Below, in pieces: positions 11,803-45,045 of a stretch of 64,000 bases of DNA. The stretch is taken from positions 49,258,432-49,322,431 of the forward strand of contig OX439128.1 of the NCBI GenBank assembly GCA_949318235.1, read 5' to 3'. Both the position numbers and the translations under genes were made by a program. Every line of letters begins with the position of its first letter. The first letter of the stretch is position 1. The notes beneath the pieces were generated by a model that was not told the DNA's origin, did not search any database, and saw nothing but the letters and a program-made list of their open reading frames with translations. The stretch comes from Ecdyonurus torrentis (lineage: Eukaryota > Arthropoda > Insecta > Ephemeroptera > Heptageniidae).

Positions 11803-12931
11803 CTAGTTATCGGTTATCGCCTTTCCCCCCCCCCCCCCCCCCCACAAAATACGAAAAAAAAATAATGCTCTCATATATATAAATATAAACACCCTGATCC
11901 GTCGATAACTATAATACAATTAATAATTATCATCATCATAACCTTTTTTTTTTTTTTTTTTAATGCTATATGACATGATAATTTTAAGTTCGTGTTTATC
12001 TATTTTTAATATTATCTTTTATGCAAATTGAAATGTAAAAAGTTTATTTATTTTAATTGTTATAAAATTAAAAAACTGATGTTTTATAATATCTCTTTCT
12101 TTGATGTTAAATTATGCTAATTTCCATGTAAAATTGTGGAATTGGTTTTGTAAAATAAATAATTATGACATATAATTTCTTTTTGGATTGATTTACTTTA
12201 GACGTTTCCTAAAATCAGTTTCAAAGATAGTTTATGTTTACTTCAAAGAATTATAAATTTGGGATATTTATATTTTTTGAATGTCATTTCCGCGTATATG
12301 CATAAAATCGTGTTTAGAAAGTTTGAAATAATTTTCCTATCATAGTAAATAATAATAAAAAAATTTGCACTTGACTGTGCATTTGAAATATAATGTAAAT
12401 TGTACCCAATTTGAAAGGAAATAGTGATCAATCAATAAAGTAGGATAAATTACTGTATATTATATTATACATTATTAACTCTATTACTTTTTTTTTTAAT
12501 GTAAATAACCGAGTTTTATATAGTGCTAAATTGCGCTTCTAAACTTTAAACTGTATAATACACTACATATGGTATAGTGTGGTAAATATTAGTAATGATT
12601 TGAGCCATTATTCAAACTATTAAGTCATTGTAGTAATTTAGGAAAATTAGTAATTGTTTAATATTCAAAGATTATGTTGTCATTATGACTTCTCTCATTA
12701 TTAAACTTCGATTTTTTTTCCTTGTTCAATCAAGTTGATGTAATATAACCAAATTATCATGCATAAAATACAGATTATTTTCCAGAAAACTTTGTTAATA
12801 TTCCCAATCACTTCCTGCATATTGTAACCATGCTTGGGGCTGCAATGACTTAATATTCATATTGAAAGTTGCTTGACCTTGCACATGCTCTGGCACGTCA
12901 ATCAATCACATGAACTGATGGTGTGTTTCAG
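11803..12931. other. AT-rich DNA upstream of the first visible LIN37 exon
   Basis: Includes a poly(C) run at 11826-11843 and poly(T) tracts. No exon was recognised. It is probably intronic to LIN37, because the first exon seen at 12932 starts with a splice acceptor in mid-codon. Confidence 0.5.
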
Positions 12932-15402
12932 ATGCAGAGCCAGAAGAGGAAGAAGATGAAGAAGTAGCCGCTGCAGTGGACCAAATGCTTAATTCTCCTA
13001 ACACAGCTGCTGCTAAGTATGCAGCTCAGTTAAACAAGTCTACACCACCTCTTGCTGTTGTCTCCAGTCCTGCAACACTAGCCAATCCTCAACTTCAGGT
13101 GGCACGTACTCGCCTCACAGGCTTGCTGCATCGCGTCAATAAACAATCGTCAGTAAACGAGGATTCAGAGGAAGATGAAGATGATCAGCCACTCTCTCAA
13201 TCTGTTACTAATAAAACACAAGAAAAACCAGAGTCTCCTGAGTAAGTCACTTCTAAATAAGTATATTACAAAAATAAGCAAGACTAATTGTGTTTGTTGT
13301 GTAGAGAGAAGCAGGGTGGTTCTCCAACGCCAGGTACTCCAGCAGTTCGTATTAAGCAAGAGGCAGGTGTCACCCCAAGTTCATCTTCCTCGTCAAAACA
13401 ATTGTCTGCCAAACGTCGTAAGAGACGTGAAGGAGGACCTACAGATTCTGCCTTTCATCATACGTACGTCATGAAGTTATTTGATAGAAGTGTAGATCTG
13501 GCGCAGTTTGGTGAGACGACGTCTCTCTATCCTGTGTGTAGGGCATGGATGGCTAACCAACCACGTAACCCTAACTTGGTACCCAGGTAAAATAGCTTGT
13601 TGATAATTCATTGCCCTAGTCTAGTCTTGTGTATGATAGAGTGTTTAACGTAAGAACGTACTTGCAGACGTCGCTCTCCAACACCTCCGCCAAGCGATGA
13701 GGATGAGGAGAAGGAAGAAAAAGACGATGGCTCAACCAAGGGCAGTTCTGATGAGGAGCCCCTCAAAAATGTGTACAAGATGCCTCCACCTGTCTCATGT
13801 GACTTCCTCATGCGTGTACCTTCACCAGACCAGCATATTGTCCAGCCTATTGTCCTCAACCAGGTATTACAATCTAATTAATATAAAGATGAAAGAAAAG
13901 AATAGTAATTGCTTTTTCACATTATTGCGTGCTCAAAATTTACTCAAAACATGCAAGGAAAAAAAAATACAGTACAATCATATTAAAGACGCTAAAATAA
14001 ATATGACGAGATATTGCCGTCCACACCGTGCTATTTTTTTTTTTTTTTTTTTTTTTTTATTACTTTGAAATTGAATATAAACTCAAGTAGTGTTATTGCA
14101 TTTCATTTATATAAAATTTTTTTTTATTTATTTTGGTGTTTCTGATTTTTTATTTTTTTTCCTGCATGTAATAGTTAAACATATAAAATTTCAGCTCAAA
14201 ATACTGTACTGTGTAAAAAGCAACTACTATAATTTCATTCTTTATATTGTAATATAAGGTAAACAAAAAGTTTTGATAAAAAATGCAGATATATGAAAAA
14301 ATTAACAGGGATGCCTTTTAAAATAAGTTTTAGCCTCAATCAAAAATTATTTTCTCCCATAGGGCATTCCTAATGTGCTAATCTCTTTTCCCTATGCGGT
14401 ATTGTGTTTATTACACAATAATGTTATTTCAGGAGGCACAAGAAGGAGGCAGAGATGATCGCATGCTGTTAGCAGAACATGTGGAGCGTTGGCGTTCAAC
14501 CAAGGGCAAGTGGATGCAAGCTGGGCATGACAATGAGCAACGTTACAAGGACAGTATCGGCATTATTGAGGAGATCTACAAAAAGTAAGTCCATTTGCTT
14601 GTTTCTCTGTCCATGTGTTGTAAACTGAAGGCCATGCATGAAACCCAACATCAAAAATGATGCTGCGTTCTAAAGAATTCATTCATGATTTTTCAGGTAT
14701 TTGGCAACTCTGCTCTTACCTGACAATGTATTTTCTACCCTTTTCTGTAGAAAGCGGCATCGTCTTTGATGTTGGATTTACTGTGGCCATCAGTGTTCTA
14801 TAATTGTTAGATAGGAAATAAAAACCATTTCGGTTTGAACATCAAATGAAAGAATAGGGAAACCAATGAAGATATGTAGTCCTTAGTTAGGTAAAGATGT
14901 GGATGGCACAGTTAGCATTAATATTTACATTGATTAAGACGTTTTGAGGGTGACATCTTTAATTACTTAGAGTGTAATGTATCAACATTACTCTACCATT
15001 TTCTAAGCAATTAAAGAAGAACATCACCCTTGAAAACGTCTTAAGCAATGCAAATAATTGTAAGAACTGTGCTATCAGCATCTCACCTAGCTACAGACGT
15101 CATTGTGGTTCTTGCTTGTTGATTTCTCTATTGTTTTCTTTGATAATATATGTTGTACAGTGGAATTAAAGCCATTATAGCACAGCTGTAATGCGGAGAA
15201 ATATACGTAGCCATAACGTGAACATAGACCATAGAATATGTTCATTTCTCTGTATTATAACTGTGTAATAATTGTCTTTTTTTATTGTTATCTATTTGTT
15301 AGGGTATACATAACAATTAAATTCAAATTAGGCTAATGATCAAGTGGTTTCTATTAATTCTCATTGTATTTCTTTTCCAGGGCACAAGAAATGTACGCAT
15401 AA
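12932..15402 (+). CDS. LIN37: LIN37 homolog, MuvB/DREAM complex subunit (5' end missing)
   Basis: LIN37 is a subunit of the MuvB core (with LIN9, LIN52, LIN54 and RBBP4), which represses cell-cycle genes in the nucleus. Five exons are visible: 12932-13241, 13305-13586, 13668-13863, 14433-14584 and 15381-15402, each with GT/AG sites and consistent phases. They give about 320 residues, against 246 in human. Diagnostic stretches are [24 protein letters not shown] (the CRAW motif) and VYKMPPP. The C-terminal helix is [12 protein letters not shown]...[35 protein letters not shown] segment matches the N-terminal helix of vertebrate LIN37. Before it lies an acidic, Ala/Asn-rich extension beginning [10 protein letters not shown]. 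The first exon starts in mid-codon after a TTTCAG acceptor, so an upstream exon with the start codon must exist and was not found. The last exon is only 22 nt. Identification is firm; the 5' boundary is not. Confidence 0.9.
14628..14800. mobile_element. Degenerate inverted repeat in LIN37 intron 4
   Basis: GGCCATGCATGAAACCCAAC and nearby ATGATGCTGC at 14630-14668 are answered in inverted orientation by GGCATCGTCTTTGATGTTGG and TGGCCATCA near 14757-14795. It is probably an old MITE. Confidence 0.4.
14800..15200. mobile_element. Degenerate long inverted-repeat element in LIN37 intron 4
   Basis: AAGACGTTTTGAGGGTGACA near 14938 pairs with ATCACCCTTGAAAACGTCTT near 15025. Weaker pairing continues outward for roughly 100 bp on each side, including GGCACAGTTAGCATT against AACTGTGCTATC. 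It looks like an old foldback/MITE copy. Confidence 0.5.
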
Positions 15403-21827: not shown

Positions 21828-23010
21828 TCAGAGGTCTTCATCTCCAATACCTTCAAATGCATCATTTTCTACGAGAGGGTTAGTAGGTATAGGGTTAGGA
21901 GTGGAGGGACTTGCCTTAATTTTCAGAGACACACTTGATAACTTCTCCGACAATTTACGTATTGAAGAAGTGGAGGAAGATTCACTGCTTCTAGTAGTTG
22001 TAGTCATACCATTGGAATCTTGGGAACGTGAACTGTATGAGGAGTCCTGAAATAAATATATAAAAAATTCAGTTAAATATTATTTAACACAACTTCTAAT
22101 TGTGTACAAGAAAAAAAAAAAAAAAAAAAAAGGGGGGGGGGGGGGGGGGGGGGCATCAGAAAAATATTACAAGATATTCCATGACATTGATTTGAAATAG
22201 GCATACTTACAATTGGAAAAATGTGTGGTGAATAAAATCATGCTATAAAATTTAATTAAAAGTATTGTTACATCAATGGGCAAAATAAGTAAATAAGAAC
22301 AAAATGAGCACATAAGATTTGGCCTGGTTAGTATTTTTTTTTTATGCCATAAAATCTCTGTACGTCTAACTGTAAGCTCATTGCTATCTCCCTACTTCCC
22401 AATTTTTCCTCATCTGTGTGTTTTTCTAGCAAACTTTTTTTTTTTATTATTATTATTTTTTCTAATTAATTATTCCACAGTTGATATGTATTTTCTCATT
22501 TATATATATTTTTAAATGGAACATATTTTTATTTTTCTTGAAATTTAAATGGAGACTTTAACCACAATTTCTCATCAGCTTTTTGTGTTAGTCACCATGA
22601 CAAAAAATTCACTGCGGGTAAACATTTAAATAAGGGCAAAAATTAATCAAAATAAATTAAAATTCTTGCCAGGCCTTATGGGCTTAAAATTTTAACCCTT
22701 TTTAATTACTTGCTTACTAAAAAAATGGTAAATAAGGGAGGGAGCAAAGTTGAAATTGTACTTACTGAAATGCCATCACTTGAAATTGACTTTGAGATTG
22801 ACGAGTTGACTTTCTGGCTGCTACCATCTCTTCTCATGTATGACCAACTGCTGTTGCGAGATCTGTTCAGCACCTGCACACCAACATATAGCATGTTTTA
22901 GCAAGTCCTCTTCAAAATTTAATGAAAATGTTTAACAACATGAAAATAATAAGGAGTCCATAACAGCCTAGTTGCTGAAGCTGACAAAAAGAAAACGTAC
23001 AGCAATTTCG

Positions 23011-23049
<39 letters not shown>

Positions 23050-26000
23050 CCCAATTGCAAGGGACCTAGAAAATTAACATTTCACAAAATCAAGAGAGCA
23101 ACCCTTGAATAATCATTACCCTGATAATAAGCTCATTGCTATCTCCCACTCCCCCTTTTGCTGTTGTTGTTTTTGTCCAATTACGGTATGTGTTTTACTA
23201 TCAAATATTTTAACTATCATTAGTTGGGGTATTTGTTTTTTGGGACCAATTTTAGAGTTCATGGCTTAATTAATTTCTAATGACCTGGTAAAGGTGTAAA
23301 ACAGTACAGAATTAATTAAAGTTATTGAATGCTAAATTGTAGATTAACATTTACCTTGTTTGGTATTCCTCCATTTTTCTTCACCAAGAGCTCAGCAACC
23401 ATATCTTGTAGACAGGTTGACATGAGGATTGCTTGCTCGCTGCAGATGGTCACCCATTGCAAGTGGTCCTTGGACATGAGATATTCAAATGACAGCTCCA
23501 GTCGTGGACCTGGTCCTTGTCCAGCTAGGACAGCACTCTGTTCTCCATTCTGCCAAAAAATACAGTTCTTACTACCCTGCTATAGACCAGCCATTATGAA
23601 GAATACCCAGTTTTTAATCTGGTAAAATGTGGTGGACCAGTTACTCAAGTGCCAAGTTAAAGACAAAAGGTTGTGATACAGCAAAAAATTAAAGTCACCT
23701 AAAGGTATTAGGAATCTTAAAACATTATAGTTTTCCTGGGCAGCATTAGGGATTTTAAGGCATTTAGGTGACCTTAAGTACTTCAATAAATCACAATTTT
23801 TTCCCTCAATTTGTGTAATTTTTTGACTTGGAGTTGATATCAAACTTACATGTAATGTAGTAATTCTCCAGCATCGCATCCGAGTTACTCTGAAATTTCC
23901 CTCTCGTACCACTTCTCCACAAACACTGTCACTGCTGCCACTACAGCTACTACCATCTGGAGTTGACAGTTGGATACGGAAGTTGAGTTCTCGATTACCA
24001 GCACTCACTGACACTCTTGTACCTTGTCGAGGATAGTCACACCAGCAAGGTTTGAACTGCATGAAGCCGTAGTATTTCAGACCTCGCACTGCTTCCAAGT
24101 ACTGAAATGTAAAGTGGAAAATATTTAGTTTCAAACTTCTGTAATATAAATTGATTCTAAAATAAAGGCCAAAAGTATTGAAGGGCTATTTTTTTTTTTT
24201 TTTTTTTTAGTTTTTTTTTTTTTTTTAGTTTTATTTTATGTACATCAAAGAAAAGGATCGGAGAAACTAACAAGCGCCTTAGCAAAGTGAAGAGAATTCC
24301 ATAGTTTAATGAAACTCTTGCTAACACTGAGATAATAAATATATTAGATAGCTTTCTGCACTAAACTCCAAGAGAAAATGGAGTGTGTGGACTGATCATT
24401 CATAATAATGCTGCTCGTAAACCCTGTTTTCTGCTACTAAAATGACGATCGGCTATGGTTAATCAAATGGAATGCGCATTTTTTGGTGCAAAAAGGGCTT
24501 ATGAACAGCACTAGTTTCTTTCCAAGTCTGTAAGGCCCAACAAAGGCATACCACACTCTTTTTTCTTTTGTAGTTTAGTGCCAAAAGCTATCTACATGTA
24601 TTTAGATTATTATTTGTGATATTTTCACTGAGCTATGGGACTCTCTTCACTTTGGTAAGGCCCTTGCTGGTTTCTTTTATTCTTTTGTTTCAAATTTATC
24701 ATATCCAATTACAATGGTTTTCTTTCCTTCATATCTCAGAGGACATTAGATTTGAACTAAGAAGGTAGAAAAAGTGCGACACAATATTATTGAGGGTAAA
24801 AAAGTACAAAGTGTTTATACAAGTATTTCCACTGAACCAATAAACAAACAGAGGAGAGGACATTAATGAAAATTAAAATGAATTCTATACCACACGACTA
24901 GATAATCCCAACAACTAATGATTTACTAAAAAAGAAATACGATTAAAAGTTACGTGCCTCTTGTTTTTCTCCCCTAGATTGCAAAGTAGATAACATTTGT
25001 CTAGTCTCCATGTCTGCCAGCACCCAGCCCCTCTCCACCTCTGCCACTGCTTGTGTGTACAGCAAGTTGAGAGCAACGCGGTCTTCACATAGACCTGCTT
25101 CCAGTCCAATGTCCCAGAAACTAAAAACATAAACAACTTTGATTAGCACTTGTTCTTTGTATCCTAGTCTTTGTGATTATCCCGACTATTGACAAGTAAG
25201 GAAATACTACCTACAAAGGAGTTGCTATTTGTTATCAATAATATCCACATCTGAAATAATATTATATGCATGCACAGTACATTTAATCTATGATGCCATA
25301 GTCCCCTTGCGAAGGTGAGTCAAGATGTTAATTTGGTTATGAGTTGTGGCTATATCTGCACTGCTTACTCATAGCAATGGTAACATACTTGCTTAAACAT
25401 GCTGAGATATCACCACTCAACATACCTATCAAGTGGGGTGGCTTTGGCCAAATATTCAAAAATTATTTACCCCCTAACTAAAGTTCATATAAATATGAAA
25501 CAAAAACCAAAAGATAGTGTAAAAATAAAGCCTTCCTTCAGATTTTGTTTTACATTTTTATGAGCTTTAGTTAGGGAACAAATGATAGTTCAAAATCTGG
25601 CCAAAGTCACCCAACTTAACAATACTAGTTGGTTATCAAGGCCAGCCACTCTATCAGATAATATCAATACTACAAAGTCAGCAGTGCTCCTCCTTAACTG
25701 GCTTTCTTTACTTGTCAGTAGATGGTGTATTCAGTAAAAGTGTAAAAATATTTATGTATGATAAATTTTCAGCAAAATCTTACCTTTTTCTTAGAACTAT
25801 CCTATGTGGACCTTCTAATGTTTTCCATGATATGTATGGAGATTCAAAATCTTGGAGCTTTTTAATCACTAAAATACAAAAACAATGTAAGTTATTGAAT
25901 ACATGTTTATGTGTCATATACATGACAAGTGCAATTTCTTTATTTTGCAAAGTATCAATAGTTGTGCGTTTATGTCATTCTGGGCGAAGTACTTGTCAGT

Positions 26001-26197
26001 TGTCAAAAAAAACAACAACAACAACAACAACAACTCTTGCCATGTATTAGAGTTAATAAAGTCTTGCCAAATATATCTGACTGATTATGTTAAAGTTTCT
26101 CCATATGTTTTTAACATTTAAAGCTATAACCGCTGCAGTCAGAATGATTTGGGAGGAGTATACTTATACATGACAAAATGTACAATAATGTACAGTT

Positions 26198-26228
<31 letters not shown>

Positions 26229-29200
26229 GTAGCTGGCAAGTGCATGGCCTACACTGCAAGTTTGTGACGACAAGTACTTGTCCCTAGAGTGGCATATAAG
26301 CACAAGTCTTGCAGTTGCTAATGTTCAGAAAGCTGTGTTAGCTGTGTTAAAGAATCAATAAAATTAATCAATAAAGAAACTGAAACTTCAATTTAGAAAA
26401 GTTTATGAGGGACGAGAAAAGTGCATTTTAAAATTACAATTTAAAAAGCTTTAAGGTAGCATTTACTCAAAACAAATGGATAAATTTATGAGATGGGATC
26501 TTCGTGCATACAACTATTGTGTCCCTTAACCTTTTTTTTTTTTTTTGTTTAATGGTTTAAAAAATTATAAAGTGTCAACTCTTGGACTTAATGATGTAAC
26601 AACAACCATATCTACAACTACAATAGAAATCGGAAAGCACTTTGCCTACTTTACACGCTTTCTTTCCAGTTTGTGAGGCTACTGGTTAAAAGATACAATG
26701 TGTGTATTAGGAATAAATATTCCATTCCCCCCCCCCCCCCCCCCCCCCAGGATGTAACTACTACACTCTTGTTTCATATATCGCCCTTGTTGGGTCCAAA
26801 GGGCATTTCAAGGTCGACTCACAAAAGGCGTACTTGCATTTTTATCCATTCCCACAAAGGGCGTACTTGCACTTGGTTTTACATGTTAAGCTTATGGCGG
26901 ATGCGCGCGCAGCATCGAAAGTAGCCAAATGCAAGTACCCCCTTTGGACGCAACAAGGGGTTATAATAGATTATTAGGCCACTCCTCCATTTCAAGCAGC
27001 ATTGCCACATTTCTAGTCATACCTGTGTATTATGAGATTTCATTTACATTGCAGGTAGACTGAAGTAGGCAACAGCTCGCAAGCATTGTTGCCTTTTTAC
27101 ACACCTGCTCGTCTTGTAAATGAGGTGTAGCAAAGGTAAATTGCAAACACTGCTTGAACTAGGGGAGTGGCCTAATAATCTATTTAGATATGGAACAGAG
27201 TATAGGATGAGTCAACATTGTCATAAAACAAGTGCTGTACTTACCAGACAAATCTCCGTTGTCTTCTCTGCGAATGAGAAACAAGGAGAAGTATTTGACA
27301 AGCTCAGGTGCCAAATGTATCTTCTGACACAAAGCCTACAACAAAACAGTCAATGATATGAGGTATTGCAAAGCAATTAGATTCATTAGAAAAATAGAAA
27401 TAGGCACACAGAAATACTAGGAAAAAGTGTGGAATTGGAGATGATAAGTAGGGCCTAACTGAAAGCAAATCAGTGCCTGAGTTGGAGGTAACAAGACCAC
27501 AATAAACTAATCAACATGGCAAAGTCAAGAGCTTTGCACAATGAGCCCGCCTAAATTGTCACTCTTGTCACTCTTATAATGAGGTAATCTTGAGTGAATT
27601 TGTAGCTGACCACAAAAACTTATGAAAAAAGAAAATCCTTTCAAACCCAGTCAAACTTAAATGCATGTAGCATTATAATGAGTGTATGTACTAGTCACTA
27701 GTATATAAATGACTAATAGCTTCTAGTACAAGGTACTCTTGCTACTATAAGCTAAGATAAGTATATTTAGATAGATACTGTATACCGCAAAAATAATATC
27801 CCCCTCTGTTCCCCATGCCCCTCTGCGTTGCCTAGCAATGGATGCTCCTGTACCTGTAATGTTAATCGAGTAATTTCAGAGCTTTCGTGCACCATCTCCA
27901 ATGATGTAGATCCATATTTAATGGTGCGTAGTTAAACTTCAATTCTTTGAATTTTATTTTATGTTGCACTTAGATTTTTAGAGTCTATGAAATTTAAATG
28001 AGAATTTATTAAAAAATGTTCCTTTTTCCATGAAGTTGCACGAGCAAGCTATAGTCATTCAATATTTTTAAACCATAAATTGAAGTGATAAAAAATTAAA
28101 AGCTTTATATGTCATAAATTTTTATATTGTAAAGTAATAATTTAGTGATATTTAGCTGACTAAAACTCTTGATTATAAATATTTATAATATAATTACTCA
28201 ACGAATCCCGTTGTTACGTTGCTGACCAGCTGTTTACGGTTTTGGGGGCGGAGTTTCTCTGTATTTTACCAATCTAAATATACGTATCTTACTATAAGCT
28301 ACAAGAGTTATGTAAATTTTCTCCTGGTTTAGAAATTATTGACTCTCTCACACTAACAAGTCCCTGATAGCTGAGAGCTAATAATCTCCAATTCCTCAAT
28401 TTTAACTACTCTAATGAATCTATAATGCAATGTGGGTAGATTTACCACATTACCCTCCCCCCCCCCCAAAAAAAAAAGTCAATAATCATAGTATTTTTTT
28501 TCTTTCTTGCTTATTTGTTAACATTAAATATTATTTAAAAGTATAATTTCAATTACATTTGTTAACTACCGTTAAGAACTCACCTCTAAGATCTGATTTG
28601 TGGGTGCTGTGGAAGACACTATGAGGGACAATTTTTGTCCACTCATCAAATACAAGTCAAGGTCCACTTGAGCATTAATCTCCTTGCTAGTTTCTATCTG
28701 AGCAGATATCAGGAAGCCCATGAACAGCTCACTGGTTGAGACACGCATATCTTGGCTCACTGAAATAAATACAATAAATTTTAATTTACTGACCAGAACA
28801 TTACATAATAACACAACACACAATCAATACAAACATCCCTCATTTCCACTCACAAATTATGTACATAACTTTGTGCTTATCTAGTGTAATATAGTCACCA
28901 AGTTTTCAGATTACATTTCATTTGTATAAGGCATATTTACATACTTTTTCAGAGTATATTTTTGTGACCAAAATTTATTAAGATTGTTAATCGCTATGTA
29001 TGTATTATTATTTGTAATTGCTGATTATTCAGAGCTATTGAATTTGCTATAAGATCAGAAAAGAGGAATGTTTTTGTATACAGCAAGGTGGGACACTTTG
29101 CCATCTCATATAGTTTAGAATCATGCATTAGAGGGTGAAAAATGGGGTGAAAAAGTCACCCCCAGGGCCAAAGTCATCCCAGTAGAAAAAGAAAAACAAA

Positions 29201-31186
29201 GTATAATCTAATATGTATTAAAGCCATACAACTAGCTAAGAAATCAATGAAGAAGAAAACTTAAAAAAAATAAAGATAAATATCAAAAAAAATATATATA
29301 TATCAGCAACCTACCTGCAAGAAAATATGTTCAAACATTTGACATTGATGTACACTGGTCCTGAATAAATCTGACCGCTTGCACTAAAGTTTACCCAATT
29401 GGAGAGATTGCCGCTTTGGTCAGATTTATTTGGGACCAGTTGTATATGTGTTGACATAACAGGTATCCTACTCACAAAGTTGAGGTGTATTACCAATGGA
29501 GGTTAAAAATGATGATTATTTTTATTATTATATAACATATAGCTGCAAACACATAAAAATGAGTCTTCTATCCCTCATTTAAATATTTTTTACCTTATAT
29601 AGTGTAGTAACTTAAAAAAAAAATGTGTGTGCAGTGTGCAATTTATTAAAGCAAACAACTTAAAAGTCGTATGTATTAGTAATCATAAGGCCCTGGGATT
29701 TCATACATAGTCGTTAGTTTTTTTATATCTGTGATAGCAAGATTTTCACCAAACTATGGGACTCTCTTCACAATGGTAAGGCCATTGCTGGTTTCTCCTA
29801 TCCTTTTCTTTCAAATTTATTATACCTAACCGTGATGGTTTATTTTCCTTAATATATCTCATATTTAAGAATTCTAAAGCTTTTACGTGATCTAATTACA
29901 ACTATAGTCCTGCAAAGCTAAAGGATGGGAAATTAGGTTAACAATTGACCCTATTCCACCTAATATTGATAACATCCATTGAAGAATACCATATGAATGC
30001 TTGGACCTAATTTATTTTCATGAAGTCTCATTTTTATGTATTTTGAACCTCAGAACGCAAATACAAAAAGTAAAACCGATACTGTATTAATAAGTTCCAT
30101 GCATTATGTACAGAATTTGATCAAGAGATGTTTGACCATATACAAGAGCACTATAATGTAGCCAGAATTTTATGAAGGGAGGGGCCCAGCCTATAGTGAT
30201 GGTGGGTAAAATTTTGAAAAATGACCCCCTTGCCCTTGCTTTTTTAGACCTGATGTGTGTGGGGGGATGCCCCCCCCCCCCCCAACCTGCATACGCCCTT
30301 ACAAGGGCATATATTATGGGGTCACTCTCTCGTGCGGGTCATTACTTTGTTCGGGGGTCTCTCAAAACTCACCACCTATTCGTTTAGTTCCAAAAATTTG
30401 TGACAAAGGTCACCACGTCCTTATGACCTCATAGATGGTTGTTTGACATTGATAGACCTACCAGGGACTGGGCAATGAGATCCGAACGAGAGAGCAGAAG
30501 TGCCATTTAAAATACATTGAACTTTAAGGCTGTTGCAATGTTAAAAAGTTCTTTGAATGAGAGGGTGATCCAATACCACTGTGTTCTAGATTATACTTTA
30601 AAAATATAATGTATGTATGTATGTACCTGTCTGTACATATTTCTCCAGACCAGCTCTCCTATGTTCAAGCTGTTTAGGTGACAAAGGTATTGGCCAAACA
30701 TGTTTAGGAGGGAAAGGTGGTAGTGTATCAGCAGCAGCAGGGCCCAACTCTCTTCGGAGCTGGTCATGTAAGTTGAGAAGTTGACGATATCTAACGGTGC
30801 AATGAAATGTTCCATTGATGTGAACGTTGTAGCCCTGAAAATAATTTAAATATTTATTAATACAAAATGTAAAAGTTATGTTAAGTAGAGCATGTGTGCA
30901 TTTCGATAAATTAGTATGGATACTCTGTACATATCATCATTATGTATGTTACATACAACATCGCAATATTTCGTTTTATTACGCCTACATACACGCCATT
31001 GCAAAATAAACAAATTATACATTTAGCATCTGCTACAATCATATACAATTTCAATAGAAGATAGCTACAAATATAAGTAGTTCAGATCAAATAAAGGATA
31101 AGAAAAAGGTATTTATTGACACCCACCATATACATGGACCCTCCATTGTCGGAGAATTCTTCAGTGTCAGGAATGGAAAAATGCAT
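21828..31186 (-). CDS. SNX17: Sorting nexin 17, PX-FERM endosomal cargo adaptor
   Basis: SNX17 binds PI3P on early endosomes and NPxY motifs of cargo such as integrins and LRP1, and hands them to Retriever for recycling. Ten exons (minus, 5' to 3'): 31127-31186, 30627-30834, 28584-28759, 27245-27335, 25784-25868, 24958-25120, 23850-24101, 23355-23549, 22766-22873, 21828-22046. They give 518 aa against 470 in human. The start is MHFSIPDTEEFSDNGGSMYM, as in the family. The PX domain (1 to about 110) keeps CTVRYRQLLNLHDQLRR and FPPK. A FERM-like module spans about 115-395, with YFSLFLIR, ALNLLYTQAVAEVERGW, KYYGF, FRVTRMRCWR (Trp339, matching the cargo-binding Trp of human SNX17) and LELSFEYLMSKD. 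A Ser-rich linker leads to the tail ending AFEGIGDEDL. Intron 6 needs a GC donor (GAG|GCACGT); all others are GT-AG. Gly/Ser insertions near 318-332 and the longer tail explain the extra length. It is divergent with VPS26C. Confidence 0.97.
22111..22153. repeat. A(n)G(n) homopolymer junction in SNX17 intron 9
   Basis: About 21 A followed directly by about 22 G on the plus strand, just beyond exon 10 (it is a C-run then T-run on the sense strand, so it extends the pyrimidine stretch upstream of the acceptor). Confidence 0.9.
23012..23049. repeat. Poly(T) run in SNX17 intron 8
   Basis: About 38 consecutive T on the plus strand (poly(A) on the sense strand of SNX17), one of the longest homopolymers in the window. 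Confidence 0.9.
24240..24725. mobile_element. Long-TIR MITE (family N) in SNX17 intron 6, host of a nested copy
   Basis: AAAAGGATCGGAGAAACTAA and GCAAAGTGAAGAGAATTCCA on the left are answered inverted on the right by GGGACTCTCTTCACTTTGGT and GCTGGTTTCTTTTATTCTTT. The arms are about 100 bp each. A family A MITE is inserted in the interior. Single-arm relatives lie at about 29700-29850 and 34150-34320. Confidence 0.7.
24410..24509 (+). mobile_element. Palindromic MITE, family A copy 4 (nested)
   Basis: GCTGCTCGTAAACCCTGTTT with the family interior ATGACGATCGGCTATGG and an eroded right end GGGCTTATGAACAGC. It lies within the family N element in SNX17 intron 6. Confidence 0.8.
25431..25622. mobile_element. 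~190-bp MITE in SNX17 intron 5 region
   Basis: GGGTGGCTTTGGCCAAATA and ACCCCCTAACTAAAGTTCAT on the left pair with inverted ATGAGCTTTAGTTAGGGAAC and TGGCCAAAGTCACCCAACTT on the right. It lies between SNX17 exons 5 and 6. Confidence 0.7.
26727..26748. repeat. Poly(C) run in SNX17 intron 4
   Basis: About 22 consecutive C, unusual in such AT-rich DNA. Confidence 0.9.
26784..26960. mobile_element. MITE with CCCTTGTTGGGTCCAAAGGG ends
   Basis: CCCTTGTTGGGTCCAAAGGG is answered by inverted CCCTTTGGACGCAACAAGGG. The left arm holds two copies of AAAGGCGTACTTGCA / AAGGGCGTACTTGCA. The next element begins only a few bases downstream. Confidence 0.7.
26965..27185. mobile_element. ~220-bp MITE abutting the previous one
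   Basis: AATAGATTATTAGGCCACTC at the left and GAGTGGCCTAATAATCTATT at the right are perfect inverted repeats. Its right end is 60 bp from the SNX17 exon 4 donor. Confidence 0.8.
29351..29445. mobile_element. ~95-bp MITE in SNX17 intron 2
   Basis: ACTGGTCCTGAATAAATCTG and ACC on the left; GGTCAGATTTATTTGGGACC and AGT inverted on the right. Short interior without coding capacity. Confidence 0.7.
29700..29850. repeat. Solo arm of family N element in SNX17 intron 2
   Basis: ATGGGACTCTCTTCACAATG, GGTAAGGCCATTGCTGG and TCCTTTTCTTTCAAATTTAT match the right arm of the element at 24240-24725. No left arm is present. Confidence 0.55.
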
Positions 31187-31231
31187 TGTATGACTTACTA
31201 ATCGTTCACATATCATACAATGATTTGATAA

Positions 31232-31253
31232 AACGTCACTGTAACGTCACTGT
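31232..31253. promoter_or_regulatory. Tandem ACGTCAC half-site repeat
   Basis: AACGTCACTGT followed immediately by AACGTCACTGT, about 45-65 bp upstream of the SNX17 start codon. ACGTCA is the CREB/ATF half site. Function is inferred only. Confidence 0.4.
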
Positions 31254-31430
31254 CTTGTGAATAAATCTAGGGCTCTTGATAAAAAAAAAATAATAAAAAT
31301 TAAATCCCTTTCATTCTGCTGCCCAACTTGACAAGAAGGGGGCGGGGAACTAAACTGTTGAAAAGAGAAAGAGGGGGAGTGGGGATTTCTCGGGATTTCT
31401 CCTCTTTTCCTCCTTTCTCCTCACGTGACT

Positions 31431-31438
31431 TCTTAGCG
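31431..31438. promoter_or_regulatory. CLEAR-like E-box TCACGTGA
   Basis: CTCACGTGAC matches nine of ten positions of the CLEAR element (GTCACGTGAC) bound by MITF/TFE-family factors that control lysosome and endosome genes. It is 245 bp upstream of the SNX17 start and 415 bp upstream of the VPS26C start. The word is palindromic and could serve both genes. Confidence 0.45.
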
Positions 31439-31852
31439 CGTAAATTTTAAATTTACCCCACACCATTCACACTTTGTTTTTTTTATTTATTTTACGGCTT
31501 CTTGTTTTGAAAAATAAAAAATATATAGCTTCAATTTATAAAATGTCCTAATATTTTATTGTCACATTTTATTTATTTTCATCACAATCATTTTATATTC
31601 CTCATTTTGTTGTTTTGCCTTTGCCATGAAACTAGGGGGCGTGCCACACCCGTCAGCTGGTAAAGGTAAACAAAAATCAAAATATTATAATTTTCTCATT
31701 GTTTTTGTTGTTGTTTACATTTTATCTTTAATTAACTTGAATTACATAAAAGTTACGATTCCTTAAATAATAATAATTCAATCTTTCATAATCGTAAGCA
31801 TTTGCTTCTCTGAGAATAAACAAAACTTTGATAATTGCATCTTTGGGGAACC

Positions 31853-34649
31853 ATGTCGAATATTGTTTTAGACGTTCGTGTGAAGAAAGCAAACAAAGTT
31901 TATAGAGAAGGTGTAAGTATAAAATACTATATTTACACAAGGGAAAAATCTGAAGTACAGTACATATTTATTTATCCTTTTTATTTTACTTTTCAGGAAA
32001 TCATCAGTGGAGTAGTTGTGATTTCATCTCCGACAGATGTAAGACATGATGGTATTTCATTATTAGCTGAGGGAACTGTCAGCCTACAACTAAGCTCAAA
32101 GAATGTGGGCATCTTTGAAGCATTTTATAATTCAGTAAAAGTAAGTATAACCCTAACTGAACCACATTCCAACTTTCAGTTAATGGTACAGCTCTGCTCT
32201 GGCCACTAGTTTAAGAACAGGGCAGTGGCGGCCGCTTTGTTATCTCATAAAGATATGTAGCATAGTGTGGCTGCAGGTTGCCTATGCAAATCGTTCGGGA
32301 ACTTTTGGCCAGAGCTGTACATACCTGTTAAACTCAAGAAATTTACCATCAATGGTAGCAGGTATGTACGTCCCATCGTACCTTTAGAATTGTTGGTAAA
32401 TCCTTAAGTACACATGGTTTTAAAACTGATGGACACCAATGGATACTGAGTAGACAAGACTTCTAGCTTTCTATCCATACGATGGATACTAACTATTAAG
32501 CTGACTTATTTATTTCTAACTTTTTGCATAACATAAATTGAAACATTTTATCAGAATATTTGAAAATACACACCTATATTTGTTATTGGCTCATTAAATA
32601 ATATAATAATTTTAGTTAAAACATAATTTATTTTATTTTTATTGTTGTAGTAGTATGAAATATATTATTACAGTTTTATAATAATTTTGTAACATTTGTC
32701 CTCAGCCTGTGACTCTAATGTCATGCCTACTCGAAGTAGCAGCACCAGGAAAATTACCAGCTGGTCAAACTGATATTCCATTTGAGTTCCCATTACAAGC
32801 TCGTGGTAACAGACCATTATATGAGACATACCATGGAGTTTTTGTCAGCGTTCAATATACACTCAAATGTGAATTAAAACGTAGTTTCTTGGCTAAAGAT
32901 GTCTTCAAAGTATCCGAATTTATAGTGGAATATAAAGTAAGACAGTATAGAAATAATTTCCTCTTAAATACTGTATATCAATGTTGTTGCGAACAATATG
33001 TGTAACTCGTTTTTTGTCACGTGAAGCAAAATGTCTATCTTGTTTTTTATCACGCATTTTTTGTAAGTCGAGCGCCATCTTCATTACGTTTGGAAATGAC
33101 ACACATTTTGCTTAGCTTGACAAAAAACAAGATACGCATATTGCTAAACATGACAGATAACGAGATAGACATTTTTCTTCGCGTGACAAAAAACGAGTTA
33201 CACATATTGCTTGCAACAACATCAATATCTCTAATTTCTTTGTATCTACTTTTCAGGAAGCTATTTGTGTTAAAGCAGAAGTAAAACCAGTTCAATTTAC
33301 TATCTCACCTGAATCTCTACAAAATGTTAAGGATCGTATGCACATTCCTCGTTTTAAAATTATTGGTCACTTGGATTCAACTGTATGTTGTCTAACAAAA
33401 CCATTCACAGGAGAGGTAAGATGATAAAAATAGCCACACGTGATCTTTGAACTCAATCAGTTACAAAAATACTTTGTTTTAGTTGGTGGTCCAGCACTCG
33501 GAAGTCCCAATTAAATCTGTTGAACTTCAACTTGTACGTGTTGAAACATGTGGCTGTGCAGAGGGTTACTCAAGAGATTGTGAGTCAAATTTAATTATAA
33601 TAAAATCAAGAGACACAATAAATCAAACACACAAGAGAGCACGAAAAGTCTGTAAAGTAGGCAATTCGTGGTCACTCTGATGTCAGAGTGGCCGCAATGC
33701 ATAAGAAATTGTAGTGCAAGTTGCATAAGTTGACATTTCTCATGTCGATCTTGTTGCGAAAAATATACCTATCTCGTTTTTTTGTCAGTGGAAGCAAAAG
33801 GCCTATCTCGTATTTTGTCAGTGGAAGCAAAAGGCCTATCTCGTATTTTGTCAGTGGAAGCAAAAGGTCTATCTCGAGCGCCATCTACATAACGTTCGGG
33901 AACGAGATAGGCCTTTTGCTTCTACTGACAAAATACGAGATAGGCCTTTTGCTTCCACTGACAAAATAAGAGATAGGCTTTTGGCTTCCACTGACAAAAA
34001 ACGAGATAGGCCTTTTTCTTGCAACAAGATCGATGTGTCGTTTTGACATTGCAATTGAATTTTGGGTCAAAATAAATAAATATATTTTTACAAATCCCAT
34101 TTTGTGTTTAATAAATTAAAAAGGCATGTTTCTAGTCCTGAAGAGGGGCTTTAAATGATAAATTTGAAAGAAGAGGTTGGGAGAAAACTAGCAAGTGCAT
34201 CATTACCATAGTGAAGAGAGTCCTATAGTTCAGTGAAAATCTTTCTAGCAGAGAGATAAAAAAACTAACACATATTGGATAGCTTTTGACACTAAACTCC
34301 AACAGAAATGGAGTATGTGTGTGTGCGTTTTAGAGACTTGTTAGAGTACATTGAATTGCTTTTTTAATTCAACATTCTCTAATCGTTCTACCATTTCTTT
34401 CATATGTAGGCCTATTTATTATTAATTTTTTTAACATTTACGTATGTATATCAACTGGGATATTTTTTCCTCAAGTTAATAAAACATTACCGGTAGGCAT
34501 ATAAAAAAAAAAAAGAAGAAGAAAAAAAAAAAACTACATTCAGGTTGAAATAATAATTATTTCATTTCATTTTTCTCCACATGATTGCTATGTGCAAATA
34601 GTCGTAACAAAATGTGGTATATTCAATGACATACATAGATATGTGATAG

Positions 34650-34687
<38 letters not shown>

Positions 34688-35492
34688 AAGAATGTGAGAC
34701 AGATGCAAGAGTTTTAAGTTGCCTAATGATACCTTTAACCAATAATTTTACATTAGATGTTCCTTCTCTATATTTCTTTCTTTCTTTTTTTTTTTTTTTT
34801 TTTTTTTTGTTAACTCTAATATTTATTTCAGCTACTGAGATTCAAAATATTCAGATAGGCGAGGGAGATGTGCCATGCGGTGTTGCCATCCCAATTTATA
34901 TGGTATTTCCTCGTCTATTTACCTGCCCAACCTTGGCTACTAGCAGCTTCAAAGTTGGTAAGTAAATTTCTATATGTATTCCCATATTCCATCAAAGTTA
35001 ATGAAGAGGTTTACCATTTTGGTGCAGAAATAGTCAAAATAGGACTTTTATTTTCACTATAATTCTTTCTAAGTTATATCCAGTAAAACAAATTATATAA
35101 TTTTCAAATGAAAGTGAAGGCATTTAATAAGTGCCATTTTCCTACCCATTTTTTTTAATCATAATTATTTATTTAAAAATAGTTTCTAATTTGACTTAAA
35201 AGTTGGCACTAAAATTTGAATGTTCACATTTACATGTTATGTTTAAAGTGGAATAACGTAAATATTCGATCGTGGTTGCATGTTTTTGACATACGTAACT
35301 AAACTTTTAAGTCACATTTCATCTTTACTTCATGTTAATTTTATATTTCGCAACTGTTAAGTTTGTCCCCTACTCCCTTAATGTATGTTTTTTTCCCCTT
35401 CTTTTCCAGAGTTTGAAGTAAATATTGTGCTGATATTCCAAGATGATCATCTCATCACAGAAAATTTCCCAATTATTTTGACAAGAGCTTAA
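31853..35492 (+). CDS. VPS26C: VPS26C (DSCR3), Retriever complex subunit
   Basis: VPS26C is the arrestin-fold subunit of Retriever (with VPS35L and VPS29), which recycles SNX17-bound cargo from endosomes to the plasma membrane. Seven exons: 31853-31912, 31997-32140, 32706-32936, 33257-33415, 33483-33579, 34832-34957, 35410-35492, all GT-AG with matching phases. They give 299 aa against 297 in human. Family stretches read through: LDVRVKKANKVYREGE, SGVVVISS, FEAFYNSVKP, IPFEFPL, LYETYHGVFVSVQYTLKCEL, VELQLVRVETCGCAEGYSRD, STEIQNIQIGEGDVPCG, IPIYMVFPRLFTCPT and HLITENFP. The two arrestin-like beta-sandwich halves divide at about residue 150. The start is the first in-frame ATG and matches the family N-terminus. 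No internal stops or frameshifts were seen. Introns 2, 3 and 5 carry MITEs. It is divergent with SNX17. Confidence 0.97.
32187..32319. mobile_element. Tc1-type MITE (family B) in VPS26C intron 2
   Basis: A TACAGCTCTG-type left end and the right end GGAACTTTTGGCCAGAGCTG followed by TA. The interior shares GCGGCCGC, TTATCT(T)CATAAAGATA and GGTTGCCTATGCAAATCGTT with the dimer at 45708-45957. The left end is partly scrambled. Confidence 0.7.
32974..33229. mobile_element. Subrepeat-bearing MITE (family C copy 2) in VPS26C intron 3
   Basis: The left end ATGTTGTTGCGAACA starts 40 bp after the exon 3 donor; the right end is GCTTGCAACAACATCAATAT. Both arms carry units of the type GTGAAGCAAAATGTCTATCT / GACAAAAAACGAG in opposite orientation. 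Its right end is 27 bp before exon 4. Confidence 0.8.
33744..34036. mobile_element. Subrepeat-bearing MITE (family C copy 3) in VPS26C intron 5
   Basis: The ends CGATCTTGTTGCGAAAA and CTTGCAACAAGATCG are inverted. The left arm holds tandem 33-bp units (GGAAGCAAAAGGCCTATCTC continuing GTATTTTGTCAGT) and the right arm holds their inverted counterparts. Units within this copy are nearly identical to each other, yet differ from those of the other two family C copies (GGCC here, TGT there). Confidence 0.85.
34150..34320. repeat. Solo arm of family N element in VPS26C intron 5
   Basis: AGTGAAGAGAGTCCTATAGT and GACACTAAACTCCAACAGAA match the left arm of the SNX17 intron element at 24240-24725. The right arm is absent. 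Confidence 0.55.
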
Positions 35493-40014: not shown

Positions 40015-40094
40015 TTAACAGTATAATTATTATACACATTAGAGGAGGAAAAATTTTCAACGCAAATAACTGAAATTAAAAAAAAAAAAAAAAA

Positions 40095-43000
40095 ATGGAA
40101 CATTTCGTAATGAATTTCTATATTTTACGATTCTTTTGTATATTACCATTCAAGAAAATAAAAAAAACACGTTCTTTTATAAGTTTTGAATCTTCAAATC
40201 TTCTCAAAATACTTAATATTATTTGCATTTTAATAATTTTAGCAGGAACATTTTACTACATGATCATACAATTAAAAATTATCATAACAATTAAAAAACT
40301 GCAATTTTTACGAATTAACTTATTGTTGTCTATATTTTTATCATTTTTAACAGGTTTATCTATATTTAATTTTATTCTAAATAATGTCAATTTTTTTAAT
40401 ATATTTTACAAAAAAATTAATTTTTATACGTTTCCTTGTATGTATTCACCAATTTTCTTAAATATTGAACGTTGGTACCTAATTGGTATTTTAATTTATG
40501 TAATAATAGGTATTTTAATATCACAGGTGGTATTTAAAAGCTATGAAAATGTAAGTGATTTGAGTATTTATTTTTTACGTGCAATTGTTATATTAACTGA
40601 ACAATTAGGATCTTTATTTTGCATTCAATTATTTTTTAGATTTAAATTTATAAATAACAATATAATATTATTACGTAAACAAATGTTTACTACACGGCGT
40701 ATTAAGAAATTTAACATATTTAATGAAAATTCATTGCTGAAAACTACAGATGGTTTACAATTGAAAAAATTGAGAAATTATTCTAAATTATTAGTAGATG
40801 CCTTGCAGTTATTACAAGAAAACTACAGTGTGTTTTGGCTTCTAGATTTAGCTCAAGGTTTTTGTTCAACGGTTATATTTTTGGCATATGTTTTGTACAA
40901 TCTGGAATCTAGATTGAATTTACGATACGTAATTGGTTTTGGTGCAGTTGTGATTGATTGCGGAATACGAATAACTTTAATTTCATACTGCTGTGGACTT
41001 GCGAGTGATGAGGTAATTTTATAAATTTTTTTATACTTATAACTTATAACCCCATATTTTAATGTTTTTATTATTATTTTACTCTTTGTTTATTATCAAA
41101 TAAACCTGTATAAATTCACTTACAAAATCTCGATGGTCTATCAAATTTATAGACTGTTCTTTTATAAACTTATAGTTATTTTCAATGATAATTACAATTT
41201 TAGTTTTCTCCCCCCCCCCATTTTTACTGATTAAGTTGCTTACTAAATACATTTTTTTTTAATGAGAAAACGAATTGCATCACTAAATATAACTTGATGT
41301 GAGTGTCAAATTGTTGTAATTGTTAAATTAATTGCTTAATATTTTATTTTGTTTTTTAAGTATAATTTGCAAACTGTATTCAATTTTTACTGCTTTATAT
41401 AATTATAGGAATAGACCAGAGAAAAACAAAAGCATTTATATCTCATAAAACACTTGATGGGACTTAAATAAATAACTTTAGTTTGTCTCAAAACCCAACT
41501 GTAGCTCCGTAGCAGTGATCAGAAATTTCAATTTATGCAACCTGCTCAATATATATTTTCATACTAATTTTTGCATGTTTCTGACGTCAGAAACATAAAT
41601 AGTCACGCAAATTGCATACTTTAAAGTATTTTCACGCTCTCTCGTGGGGCTACATTAACATTCTGGTAAAAATTATTATCACTTTTGAAGATCCCATTTC
41701 GTGTTTATTCATTAAAAAGCACATGTTGTTTTATGTGGTCTATGACTTTATACTGTATATGAAGAAATTCTTCAACATAAGACTTTTAATATCTTCTTAC
41801 ACATAACCTTTAGAAATTATTTTGCTACACAATCGATTAATCTTTTCTTCTGCAATAATTCCCAATCAATATAATTTTAATATATTTTATCGGTTTCTGT
41901 ACAATACAGAAGTATTTTTACAACGTCATCGTCATCTGACAATCAGTTTGTATATTGATTGAACTTCTATCGGTCTAAAATTATTTCATAACTTTGTAAT
42001 TGTTACTGTATTCAGTTGTGTGTTGATATTCGTTTCAGCAAAATAAATTTGGAACTTATTTTAAGAATTATAATTAATAATATGGATCTTCTAACTTGTT
42101 TAATGCCAAGTTTATACATTCTACGTTTATTTTGTATTTTACCCTTCAAGAAAACTAATCAATCAATACGTCTAAAAACTTCAAAAATTCTTCAAATTTT
42201 TAGTATTGTTTTTATTTTAATTTGTTGCAGTAGCACAATTAACATTATTATTGATAATTTTAGTTTTATAATAGTAAATACAAAACTTTCTAGTACACAG
42301 CTTGCATTACAAATATTTTTATTCTGTATATTAATAAATGGTACATTTATGACTTATTTTGTTTACAAGGATTCTGTTAAATTTTTAAATAAATTTTCAG
42401 ATAAAGTAAATTCAAAAATATTTACAAGTGTGATTACATCAAAAGAATATAAAATAGAACGTTGGTTTCATATTATCTTATTTTCTATCGAATTTATCTT
42501 TGGAGTAGTTGCCTTCTATTCATTTGAAAGCTATAATATCATTTCACTGTTAGTTTCTTCGCTCCGTATTATAATTGTCCTTACAGAACACCTGGGTAAT
42601 CTATTAAGTATTGTATTATTTCATAGATTTAAATTTATAAATAATAATATTCAAAAAGTTTCTACTAAAATTTCATTAATATACTCAAACAAAATTGAAA
42701 ATAATGATGTAAAATGTATAAAAGAAGTTCAAAATTTACGTATTAAATATTTAAAAAACTATTATAAATCTTTAGTGGATGCTCTACAGTTATTACAAGA
42801 AAAATACAGTATGTTTTGGCTTCTTGATTTAGCTCAAATGTTTTGTGCAAGTGTTACATTTTTAGCTCTTTTTTTAAATGGCATTATTGGTCAACTGCCA
42901 TTTTACACAATTGGTATTGCTTACGCGATTATTATGGTTGATAGTGCAATGCGTATTATTATAATCACAATATGCTGTGGATCTGCCAGTGAACAGGTAC

Positions 43001-45045
43001 ATATAACTTAATGATCCTGAAGTAATTAATGAATGACAGTCTGTGCGGGTTACAGAAAATTTCAATTCTCAATTAGTGATACTTTAAGAAATATTGACTT
43101 GGAAATAATTTTGATGCCGCATCATCGAGTCCAATTTCAATAATCATCTCTTCAGCTTTATTGGTTATTCAGGAAATAATATAATTTTAAAGTTTTTACT
43201 AAATAATGACTGTCATTAAATGCGTCTTGATCAAATATATCAAAACAGAGTGTTGGATTTAATAAGTATTTAAAATATAATTTTATGACTCTAAAATCAC
43301 CCGTTCATAGGTTGTAATAGGTTCAATGAAGTTCAATCTACAATAAATTTAATTGCATGAAATTTTACATTTAAAAATTGCATTAAATTTATTGCAAATT
43401 TATTGCGTGTCAATAAGAATCTATGTATTTTGATAACCAATTATTATTTTTATTTCTTTATATCAAACAATTAAACAATTAATAATTTAATAAATTTCAT
43501 CATTATTTTTAAGTGTATAATTTACATTCAGTTAAAGAAATAGTTTATTACAGAAAAAATGCTAATCATAAATAAATAGAGTCAATAATAATACATAATT
43601 TAAACTAAAATATTTTGTGTCCGAAAAATTGCCTATCTTGCAGGATACTTGAAGATAAAATTGAACCGTACTAAAAATGTCACTATAAAGTCACACTTAA
43701 TACATTATGACATTGATAAATTTATATACATTTAAAATGCATTATAAAATCGTAATACATTTTAAGATCAATAATTAGATATTGTTTAATTTATACACTA
43801 ACTTAAAATTTAAATTAATTGTTTAAAAACTCTTGCTTGTTTATAGCAATAAATAATCACAGTTTGTAACATAATCGATTCATTATTTCTTAGGGATGAT
43901 AAGAAATAAATTATGAATTATTTTAATATTATTAATTCCTTTTTATAAATTAGGAATTGAAATAGTAATTTAGGTTTGATATTCTTAAATATCGATCGTC
44001 TTTCTGTTGAAAATTTATAGATATTAATTTAAGTTAATTTAAAACCACCCTTAGAAAAAATCTTTTAAACCTTTTTTTAGTATTCATTCATTCATTCATT
44101 CATTCATTCATTCATTCATTCATTCATTCATTCATTCATTCATTCATTCATTCATTCATTCATTCATTCATTCATTCATTCATTCATTCATTCATTCATT
44201 CATTCATTCATTCATTCATTCATTCATTCATTCATTCATTCATTCATTCATTCATTCATTCATTCATTCATTCATTCATTCATTCATTCATTCATTCATT
44301 CATTCATTCATTCATTCATTCATTCATTCATTCATTCATTCATTCATTCATTCATTCATTCATTCATTCATTCATTCATTCATTCATTCATTCATTCATT
44401 CATTTTATTTAGTTATTAATTAAAAATTCTATGAAAGAAAACTTAACTATAAAATATGTCCTATTTTTTATATACACCAATAATTATTTTAAAACAAATT
44501 TTCTTAAAATCTCCAATTTTCTTTGTTTTATATATACAGGCTGAGAAAATCCCGGAGACGATAGGACTACAAATGTTGAAGACAGCTGTTGATAGCGATG
44601 AAATGAAAGAGGTAATATATCATGTAATACGCTATACATAAGCTATGCTAGGGGTTAATACCAAATCATCTAACAGCTTGCATTATATAGGGTGTTTATT
44701 TTACATATTGCTCGATTAATATTAAACAAAGAGGCATAATATTATCTCTCTCATATGTTTAGACATCCTCAATATCTTTAGATGAAATATGTATGTATAC
44801 GTACAGTATAATATATAATAGAACATGACATGATTTCTAATTTAATAAAAGCATAGTAATACTATGTGAATAAAATATTACAATATTATGTAATTCATAA
44901 AACGTATATATATATATAGCAAAATGTAAAAAGCAATATTATTTTATTACCCACATCGTTAGTTATTTCTTCTACACTGACAAAAAAGCAAATCTTGTAC
45001 GTAAAAATTATAATAACTCATTTTTAGTAATAATTATTAAATACA

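What the first reader, a model, noticed from the sequence alone, without database searches (positions are those of the whole stretch)
21828..35492. SNX17 and its Retriever partner VPS26C are head-to-head neighbours
Both genes are complete and divergently transcribed, with start codons only 666 bp apart. SNX17 is the cargo adaptor of Retriever and VPS26C is a Retriever subunit, so adaptor and acceptor of one pathway share one promoter region. I know of no described cluster of these genes in vertebrates. Shared regulation of stoichiometric partners is a plausible reason for the pairing.
Basis: partly seen in the sequence, partly recalled or inferred. Interest (0 to 1): 0.8.

Follow-up and report, generated by a model that had tools for sequence, protein, structure and literature searches.

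The report
Mayfly SNX17 and VPS26C gene neighbours
In what looks like a mayfly genome, two genes of one endosomal recycling pathway sit back to back with a short gap between them; this is a real but ordinary kind of gene pair, and nothing found so far shows that it is conserved or selected.

Summary
SNX17 (minus strand, 10 coding exons, 31186 to 21828, 518 aa) and VPS26C (plus strand, 7 coding exons, 31853 to 35492, 299 aa) are intact and head to head, with 666 bp between start codons. Trees place both with mayflies. In 15 of 15 species with usable listings, two of them odonates, the two proteins lie on contigs of different length, which speaks against a general animal or insect linkage; whether other mayflies share the pairing could not be read. 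Divergent pairs under 1 kb hold 31.6% of Drosophila genes (PMC2670823), so the layout is common and, by my estimate, a few same-pathway pairs per genome are expected by chance. SNX17 binding to Retriever is described as non-stoichiometric, its coupling as transient (PMC11339278, passages), so the argument from stoichiometric partners fails. The gap has GC-rich boxes towards each gene, which fits back-to-back promoters, but no transcript data were on hand. Verdict: real, not found outside this mayfly window, probably chance adjacency with possible passive co-expression.

The parts
21828..31186 (-). SNX17 coding region, 518 aa, 10 exons: 31186-31127, 30834-30627, 28759-28584, 27335-27245, 25868-25784, 25120-24958, 24101-23850, 23549-23355, 22873-22766, 22046-21828; one GC-AG intron after 24958
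   Evidence: hand-set model; Pfam; PDB; tree
31853..35492 (+). VPS26C coding region, 299 aa, 7 exons: 31853-31912, 31997-32140, 32706-32936, 33257-33415, 33483-33579, 34832-34957, 35410-35492
   Evidence: hand-set model; Pfam; PDB; tree
31187..31852 (.). 666 bp between the two start codons; 31.5% GC, no match to other parts of the window, no TATAWAAR match (1.1 expected)
   Evidence: no unusual DNA folding, z -0.58
31339..31347 (+). GC box GGGGCGGGG, about 150 bp upstream of the SNX17 start codon; the only such 9-mer in the window (the shorter GGGCGG also occurs at 28246)
   Evidence: function inferred only
31637..31651 (+). GC-rich block GGGCGTG + CCACACCC, about 200 bp upstream of the VPS26C start codon; the only match to either in the window
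   Evidence: function inferred only
31422..31429 (+). CACGTGAC E-box, like the core of the CLEAR element (name recalled); 5 such 8-mers in the window, both strands
   Evidence: function inferred only
31233..31249 (+). two ACGTCA half-sites, 11 bp start to start, near the SNX17 start
   Evidence: 2 found, 0.41 expected; function inferred only
21831..21872 (-). SNX17 C-terminal tail VENDAFEGIGDEDL, corresponding to the Retriever-binding tail of human SNX17
   Evidence: 100 of the 120 listed SNX17 hits end in IGD[DE]DL; function from PMC11339278, passages

Best explanation
This is an ordinary divergently paired (head-to-head) gene pair, most likely brought together by a change of gene order somewhere on the line leading to this mayfly. 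Each gene probably has its own TATA-less, GC-box promoter inside the 666 bp, and the common open chromatin may give some passive co-expression. The proteins should work together as elsewhere: the SNX17 tail docks at the VPS35L-VPS26C face of Retriever to hand over cargo. Shown here: gene identity, intactness, orientation, spacing, conserved tail motif. Inferred: promoter layout, co-expression, absence of selection on the pairing.
For: Gene models and families. Mayfly placement: VPS26C with Cloeon and Ephemera 99/99, SNX17 with Cloeon and Neocloeon 100/100. Contigs of different length for the two proteins in 15 of 15 species with usable listings, among them Ischnura elegans (108,619,349 vs 147,998,192 bases) and Ladona fulva (370,320 vs 824,191). 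Divergent pairs under 1 kb hold 31.6% of Drosophila genes (PMC2670823). In human, of 60 divergent pairs with both genes in KEGG, after removal of 12 histone and 6 family pairs, 2 shared a pathway (PMC3815023, one section). Divergent and close pairs rearrange faster in Drosophila (PMC3129673, abstract). GC-rich boxes towards both genes.
Against: Same-pathway divergent pairs are uncommon, so this one is a mild surprise. Human divergent pairs do share cellular component and molecular function more than random pairs (p = 7.4e-15 and 1.7e-11; PMC3815023). In Drosophila, fully conserved divergent pairs exceed the random control (p = 3.8e-3) and 58.2% of 1,770 pairs were positively (22.8% negatively) correlated in at least one data set (PMC2670823). 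PMC3129673 (abstract) also reports small clusters of functionally related, co-expressed fly genes.
Confidence: 0.7

Rival explanations
1. A selected bidirectional promoter: one shared regulatory region keeps the cargo adaptor and a Retriever subunit in step, and selection has held the pair together in mayflies.
For: Common pathway; a 666 bp gap without repeats beside repeat-rich introns; GC-rich boxes towards both starts and a CACGTGAC site between them; fly divergent pairs are on the whole more conserved than random pairs (PMC2670823).
Against: 0 of 15 usable species with equal contig lengths; SNX17-Retriever coupling is non-stoichiometric and transient (PMC11339278, passages); 696 of 1,267 stretches of 666 bp in the window, and 114 of 260 within the pair's span, are also free of self-repeats, so that feature is not special; motif choice was exploratory.
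Confidence: 0.14
2. Two fully independent, possibly insulated promoters that merely lie close; no co-regulation at all.
For: Two separate GC-rich blocks, one towards each gene, about 290 bp apart.
Against: Divergent pairs tend to be positively correlated in flies (PMC2670823).
Confidence: 0.13
3. Assembly artefact that joined two unrelated loci.
For: Long homopolymer runs nearby (about 22111-22153) are places where assemblies can go wrong.
Against: Both genes are intact and both place with mayflies; the SNX17 and VPS26C introns share repeat families, a weak sign of one genome. No reads were seen.
Confidence: 0.03

Closest known systems
Divergently paired genes (bidirectional gene pairs, start sites under 1 kb apart)
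   Same: Adjacent genes on opposite strands, 666 bp between start codons, no TATA-box match in the gap (1.1 expected, so weak)
   Different: Both members act in one pathway, which is uncommon; transcription start sites not measured
Vertebrate SNX17 neighbourhood
   Same: SNX17 lies among other protein-coding genes: Eif2b4, Atraid and Snx17 are kept near a fish microRNA cluster (PMC4177693, one passage); human SNX17 and EIF2B4 lie in or near the GCKR locus (PMC5013013, passages)
   Different: No Retriever gene is named among the neighbours in those passages; the human head-to-head EIF2B4-SNX17 layout is recalled, not tested
Same-pathway divergent pairs such as PPAT-PAICS
   Same: Two members of one pathway in divergent orientation (PMC3815023, one section)
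   Different: PPAT-PAICS is one of two non-family human pairs named there; the present pair was seen in one genome only

Membership tests
SNX17 (PX-FERM sorting nexin) | PX domain followed by SNX17-type FERM F1, F2 and C lobes | tested here: met
   PF00787, PF21273, PF21271 and PF18116, all above cut-off
SNX17 (PX-FERM sorting nexin) | C-terminal Retriever-binding tail (human NFAF and IGDEDL) | tested here: met
   ends VENDAFEGIGDEDL; human NFAF reads NDAF here. Of the 120 listed hits, 56 have NDAF, 100 have NxAF and 0 have NFAF in the last 16 residues. Binding itself not tested
VPS26C (Retriever subunit) | Closer to VPS26C than to VPS26A/B of Retromer | tested here: met
   VPS26C 6.1e-129; Vps26-like 6h7w 1.5e-10; VPS26A/B 2.4e-8 to 1.8e-7
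Divergently paired genes | Adjacent, opposite strands, head to head | tested here: met
   start codons 666 bp apart, outward transcription
Divergently paired genes | Transcription start sites under 1 kb apart | not testable with these tools
   no transcript data; follows from the 666 bp unless a 5' UTR intron places a start site elsewhere
Co-regulating bidirectional promoter | Correlated expression from one promoter region | not testable with these tools
   no RNA or start-site data
Conserved gene cluster (outside mayflies) | Adjacency kept in related genomes | tested here: not met
   0 of 15 usable species with equal contig lengths; indirect test, limits in Tried and rejected
Conserved gene cluster (within mayflies) | Adjacency kept in other mayflies | tested here: inconclusive
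   Cloeon contig lengths (1,646,396 and 36,396,660) differ but seem to come from different assemblies; no SNX17 hit named Ephemera in the listings

The most novel reading that the evidence does not exclude
Mayflies acquired and kept a bidirectional promoter, perhaps driven by a lysosome/endosome regulator through the CACGTGAC site, that ties the dose of the SNX17 adaptor to that of the Retriever subunit VPS26C: transcriptional coupling inside the Commander pathway by gene order.
Probability: 0.06. Interest if true: 0.5.

Novelty: new member of a known kind. Interest (0 to 1): 0.2.

Why it matters
If the pair were conserved across mayflies it would be a natural test of whether adaptor and acceptor of one trafficking pathway gain from shared transcription. 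As it stands it is one genome's neighbourhood and a reminder that a common gene layout easily invites a functional story.

Tried and rejected
A scan of the prokaryote collection genome contigs with VPS26C found 29 pattern matches and no relative, as expected for an animal gene. A third protein search, with a 256-residue SNX17 FERM piece, was meant to reach short SNX17 models such as one from Ephemera danica; no hit named Ephemera was among the 120 listed of 184, nor among the 120 listed of 619. DNA folding of the gap gave nothing unusual (z -0.58; 4 of 20 shuffles as good). Freedom of the gap from repeats was considered as a sign of constraint and dropped. One search, an automatic gene-model script, failed.

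Paper searches for a described SNX17-VPS26C (DSCR3) pairing: (SNX17, VPS26C and head-to-head: 1 paper, listing only; 12 papers; the one holding both SNX17 and bidirectional promoter concerns another gene pair, passages; 20 of 23 listed; 10 of 427 listed), where the listed papers hold neither SNX17 nor the subunit's name, so they say nothing; (9 papers, listing). (10 of 13 listed) was for the pathway. None of the titles and abstract starts shown describes the pairing; subscription journals and preprints are mostly not covered.

Contig-length comparison. I went by eye through the named rows of the listings (120 of 1,595 VPS26C hits; 120 of 619 SNX17 hits; 120 of 184 hits of the FERM piece). 17 species are named for both proteins. 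Dropped: Columba livia (no contig length for SNX17) and Cloeon dipterum (lengths differ, but the names suggest different assemblies; counting it would make 16 of 16 different). Kept: Ischnura elegans, Ladona fulva, Anabrus simplex, Polyplax serrata, Macrosteles quadrilineatus, Cimex lectularius, Ornithodoros turicata, Penaeus vannamei, Lingula anatina, Lineus longissimus, Pecten maximus, Pinctada imbricata, Capitella teleta, Amphiura filiformis, Branchiostoma floridae. For Penaeus I took the SNX17 row of 900,446 bases, which I took to be of the same older assembly; the other row (56,700,184) differs too. Limits: the length shown is that of the longest contig of a 90% cluster; both rows are single-member and single-contig in 6 of 15 (Ladona, Cimex, Ornithodoros, Penaeus, Pinctada, Capitella). 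In 8 of 15 both contigs exceed 10 Mb; in 6 of 15 one or both are under 3 Mb, where a break between neighbours is possible. Isoforms or haplotype assemblies could also differ.
Full report
What is there. The window carries two intact genes in divergent orientation. SNX17 runs on the minus strand from its start codon at 31186 to its stop at 21828 in 10 coding exons (518 aa); the intron after base 24958 has a GC donor, the other eight GT. VPS26C runs on the plus strand from 31853 to 35492 in 7 coding exons (299 aa) with six GT-AG introns. The exon ends were set by hand from splice signals and similarity; no transcript was available. The start codons are separated by 666 bp, 31187-31852. Independently of that, Pfam finds PX plus the three SNX17-type FERM lobes, and Vps26, and the best solved structures are SNX17 and the Retriever subunit VPS26C, the latter far ahead of a Vps26-like protein (1.5e-10) and of VPS26A/B (2.4e-8 to 1.8e-7).

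Whose genome. The best-scoring VPS26C hit is from the mayfly Cloeon dipterum (80%), and the two best-scoring SNX17 hits are from Neocloeon and Cloeon (59%), although plain identity is as high or slightly higher to some Orthoptera (Gryllus 60%; Anabrus 63% over 485 columns). Maximum-likelihood trees put the window's VPS26C with Cloeon and Ephemera (99/99; with Ephemera alone 91/83) and its SNX17 with Cloeon and Neocloeon (100/100) (21 and 20 rows chosen by me from the listings). The window is therefore most likely from a mayfly, probably not from the family of Cloeon. The assembly itself could not be searched: nine requests did not complete.

Is the pairing conserved? No collection of eukaryote genomes was on hand. 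As a substitute I compared the lengths of the contigs listed for each protein. 17 species are named for both; two were dropped (Columba: no length; Cloeon: apparently different assemblies), and in 15 of 15 others the lengths differ, among them the damselfly Ischnura (108.6 and 148.0 Mb), the katydid Anabrus, the leafhopper Macrosteles, the tick Ornithodoros, the scallop Pecten and amphioxus. The limits are under Tried and rejected. The test speaks against an ancient or general linkage and leaves open whether mayflies share it. [quoted passage not shown] neither passage names a Retriever gene beside it.

Is it more than chance? Divergent pairs with start sites under 1 kb hold 31.6% of Drosophila genes (2,199 pairs, 13,678 genes; PMC2670823: outline with abstract, the first of two parts of the Results, and the co-expression section). 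From those figures I estimate about 2e-5 for this exact pair and about three same-pathway divergent pairs per insect genome if an average gene has 20 pathway partners, an assumed number. In human, divergent pairs are not closer than random pairs in biological process (p = 0.06) but are in cellular component and molecular function (p = 7.4e-15, 1.7e-11); of 60 pairs with both genes in KEGG, 2 remain in one pathway once 12 histone and 6 family pairs are set aside (PMC3815023, outline and one section). In Drosophila, divergent and closely spaced pairs rearrange faster, and co-expression clusters are not kept as synteny blocks, although small clusters of related genes exist (PMC3129673, abstract and outline); against that, PMC2670823 finds fully conserved divergent pairs above a random control (p = 3.8e-3). 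A single case not known to be conserved is within expectation.

How it probably works. The 666 bp gap has a GC box about 150 bp before the SNX17 start (31339) and a GC-rich block about 200 bp before the VPS26C start (31637, the only GGGCGTG and CCACACCC in the window), a CACGTGAC site (31422, one of five in the window) and two ACGTCA half-sites. I tried 20 motifs (names and consensus recalled). For those just named the expected number in the gap, taken from the window's own counts with the gap included, was 0.01 to 0.41; four other matched motifs (TCAKTY, the downstream element, GATA, YYCTTTYY) gave 2 to 4 against 1.2 to 5.3 expected; the full E-box CACGTG is the same site counted on both strands; the remaining motifs, among them TATAWAAR (1.1 expected), CCAAT, DRE and Ohler 1, 6 and 7, had no match. 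With 20 motifs tried, single matches weigh little. The picture fits two back-to-back housekeeping promoters. In flies 58.2% of 1,770 divergent pairs were positively and 22.8% negatively correlated in at least one data set (PMC2670823), so some co-expression is plausible on general grounds.

At the protein level the partnership looks conserved. The SNX17 tail ends VENDAFEGIGDEDL. In human SNX17 the motif 459-NFAF-462 is predicted to engage mainly VPS26C and 465-IGDEDL-470 a pocket in VPS35L, and mutating them weakens Retriever binding (PMC11339278, passages). Here NFAF reads NDAF, as in 56 of the 120 listed SNX17 hits; N-x-A-F occurs in 100 of 120 and the end IGD[DE]DL in 100 of 120.

Verdict. 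Shared regulation is possible and untested; selection for the pairing is not supported by anything found here. Interest 0.2.

Noticed in passing
13288-13881 (+), perhaps from 12919: Exons of a LIN37 (MuvB/DREAM subunit) gene: PF15306 at 3.6e-22 in 13288-13590 and a weak continuation (0.0042, below cut-off) in 13654-13881; the frame 12919-13245 had no match. Six of the 43 long open frames were scanned.
   Followed up: partly
40080-41024 and 41992-43011 (+): Two neighbouring open frames (314 and 339 aa) that resemble each other and insect gustatory receptors by eye; no Pfam match at 0.01.
   Followed up: partly
intron after 24958 (-): SNX17 intron 6 has a GC donor (GAG|GCACGT); by eye no in-frame GT nearby would serve.
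   Followed up: partly
32975-33228 and 33745-34033: Large imperfect palindromes in two VPS26C introns (arms up to 99 nt, 95% complementary) with 33-nt direct units, and relatives at 19.6-20.0 kb; perhaps a local mobile repeat family.
   Followed up: partly
32196-32322 and 45705-45960: A 127-bp repeat in VPS26C intron 2 recurs as an inverted pair near 45.8 kb at 82-87% identity.
   Followed up: no
44081-44412: A long simple repeat open in three frames, reading (SFIH)n, about 330 bp.
   Followed up: no
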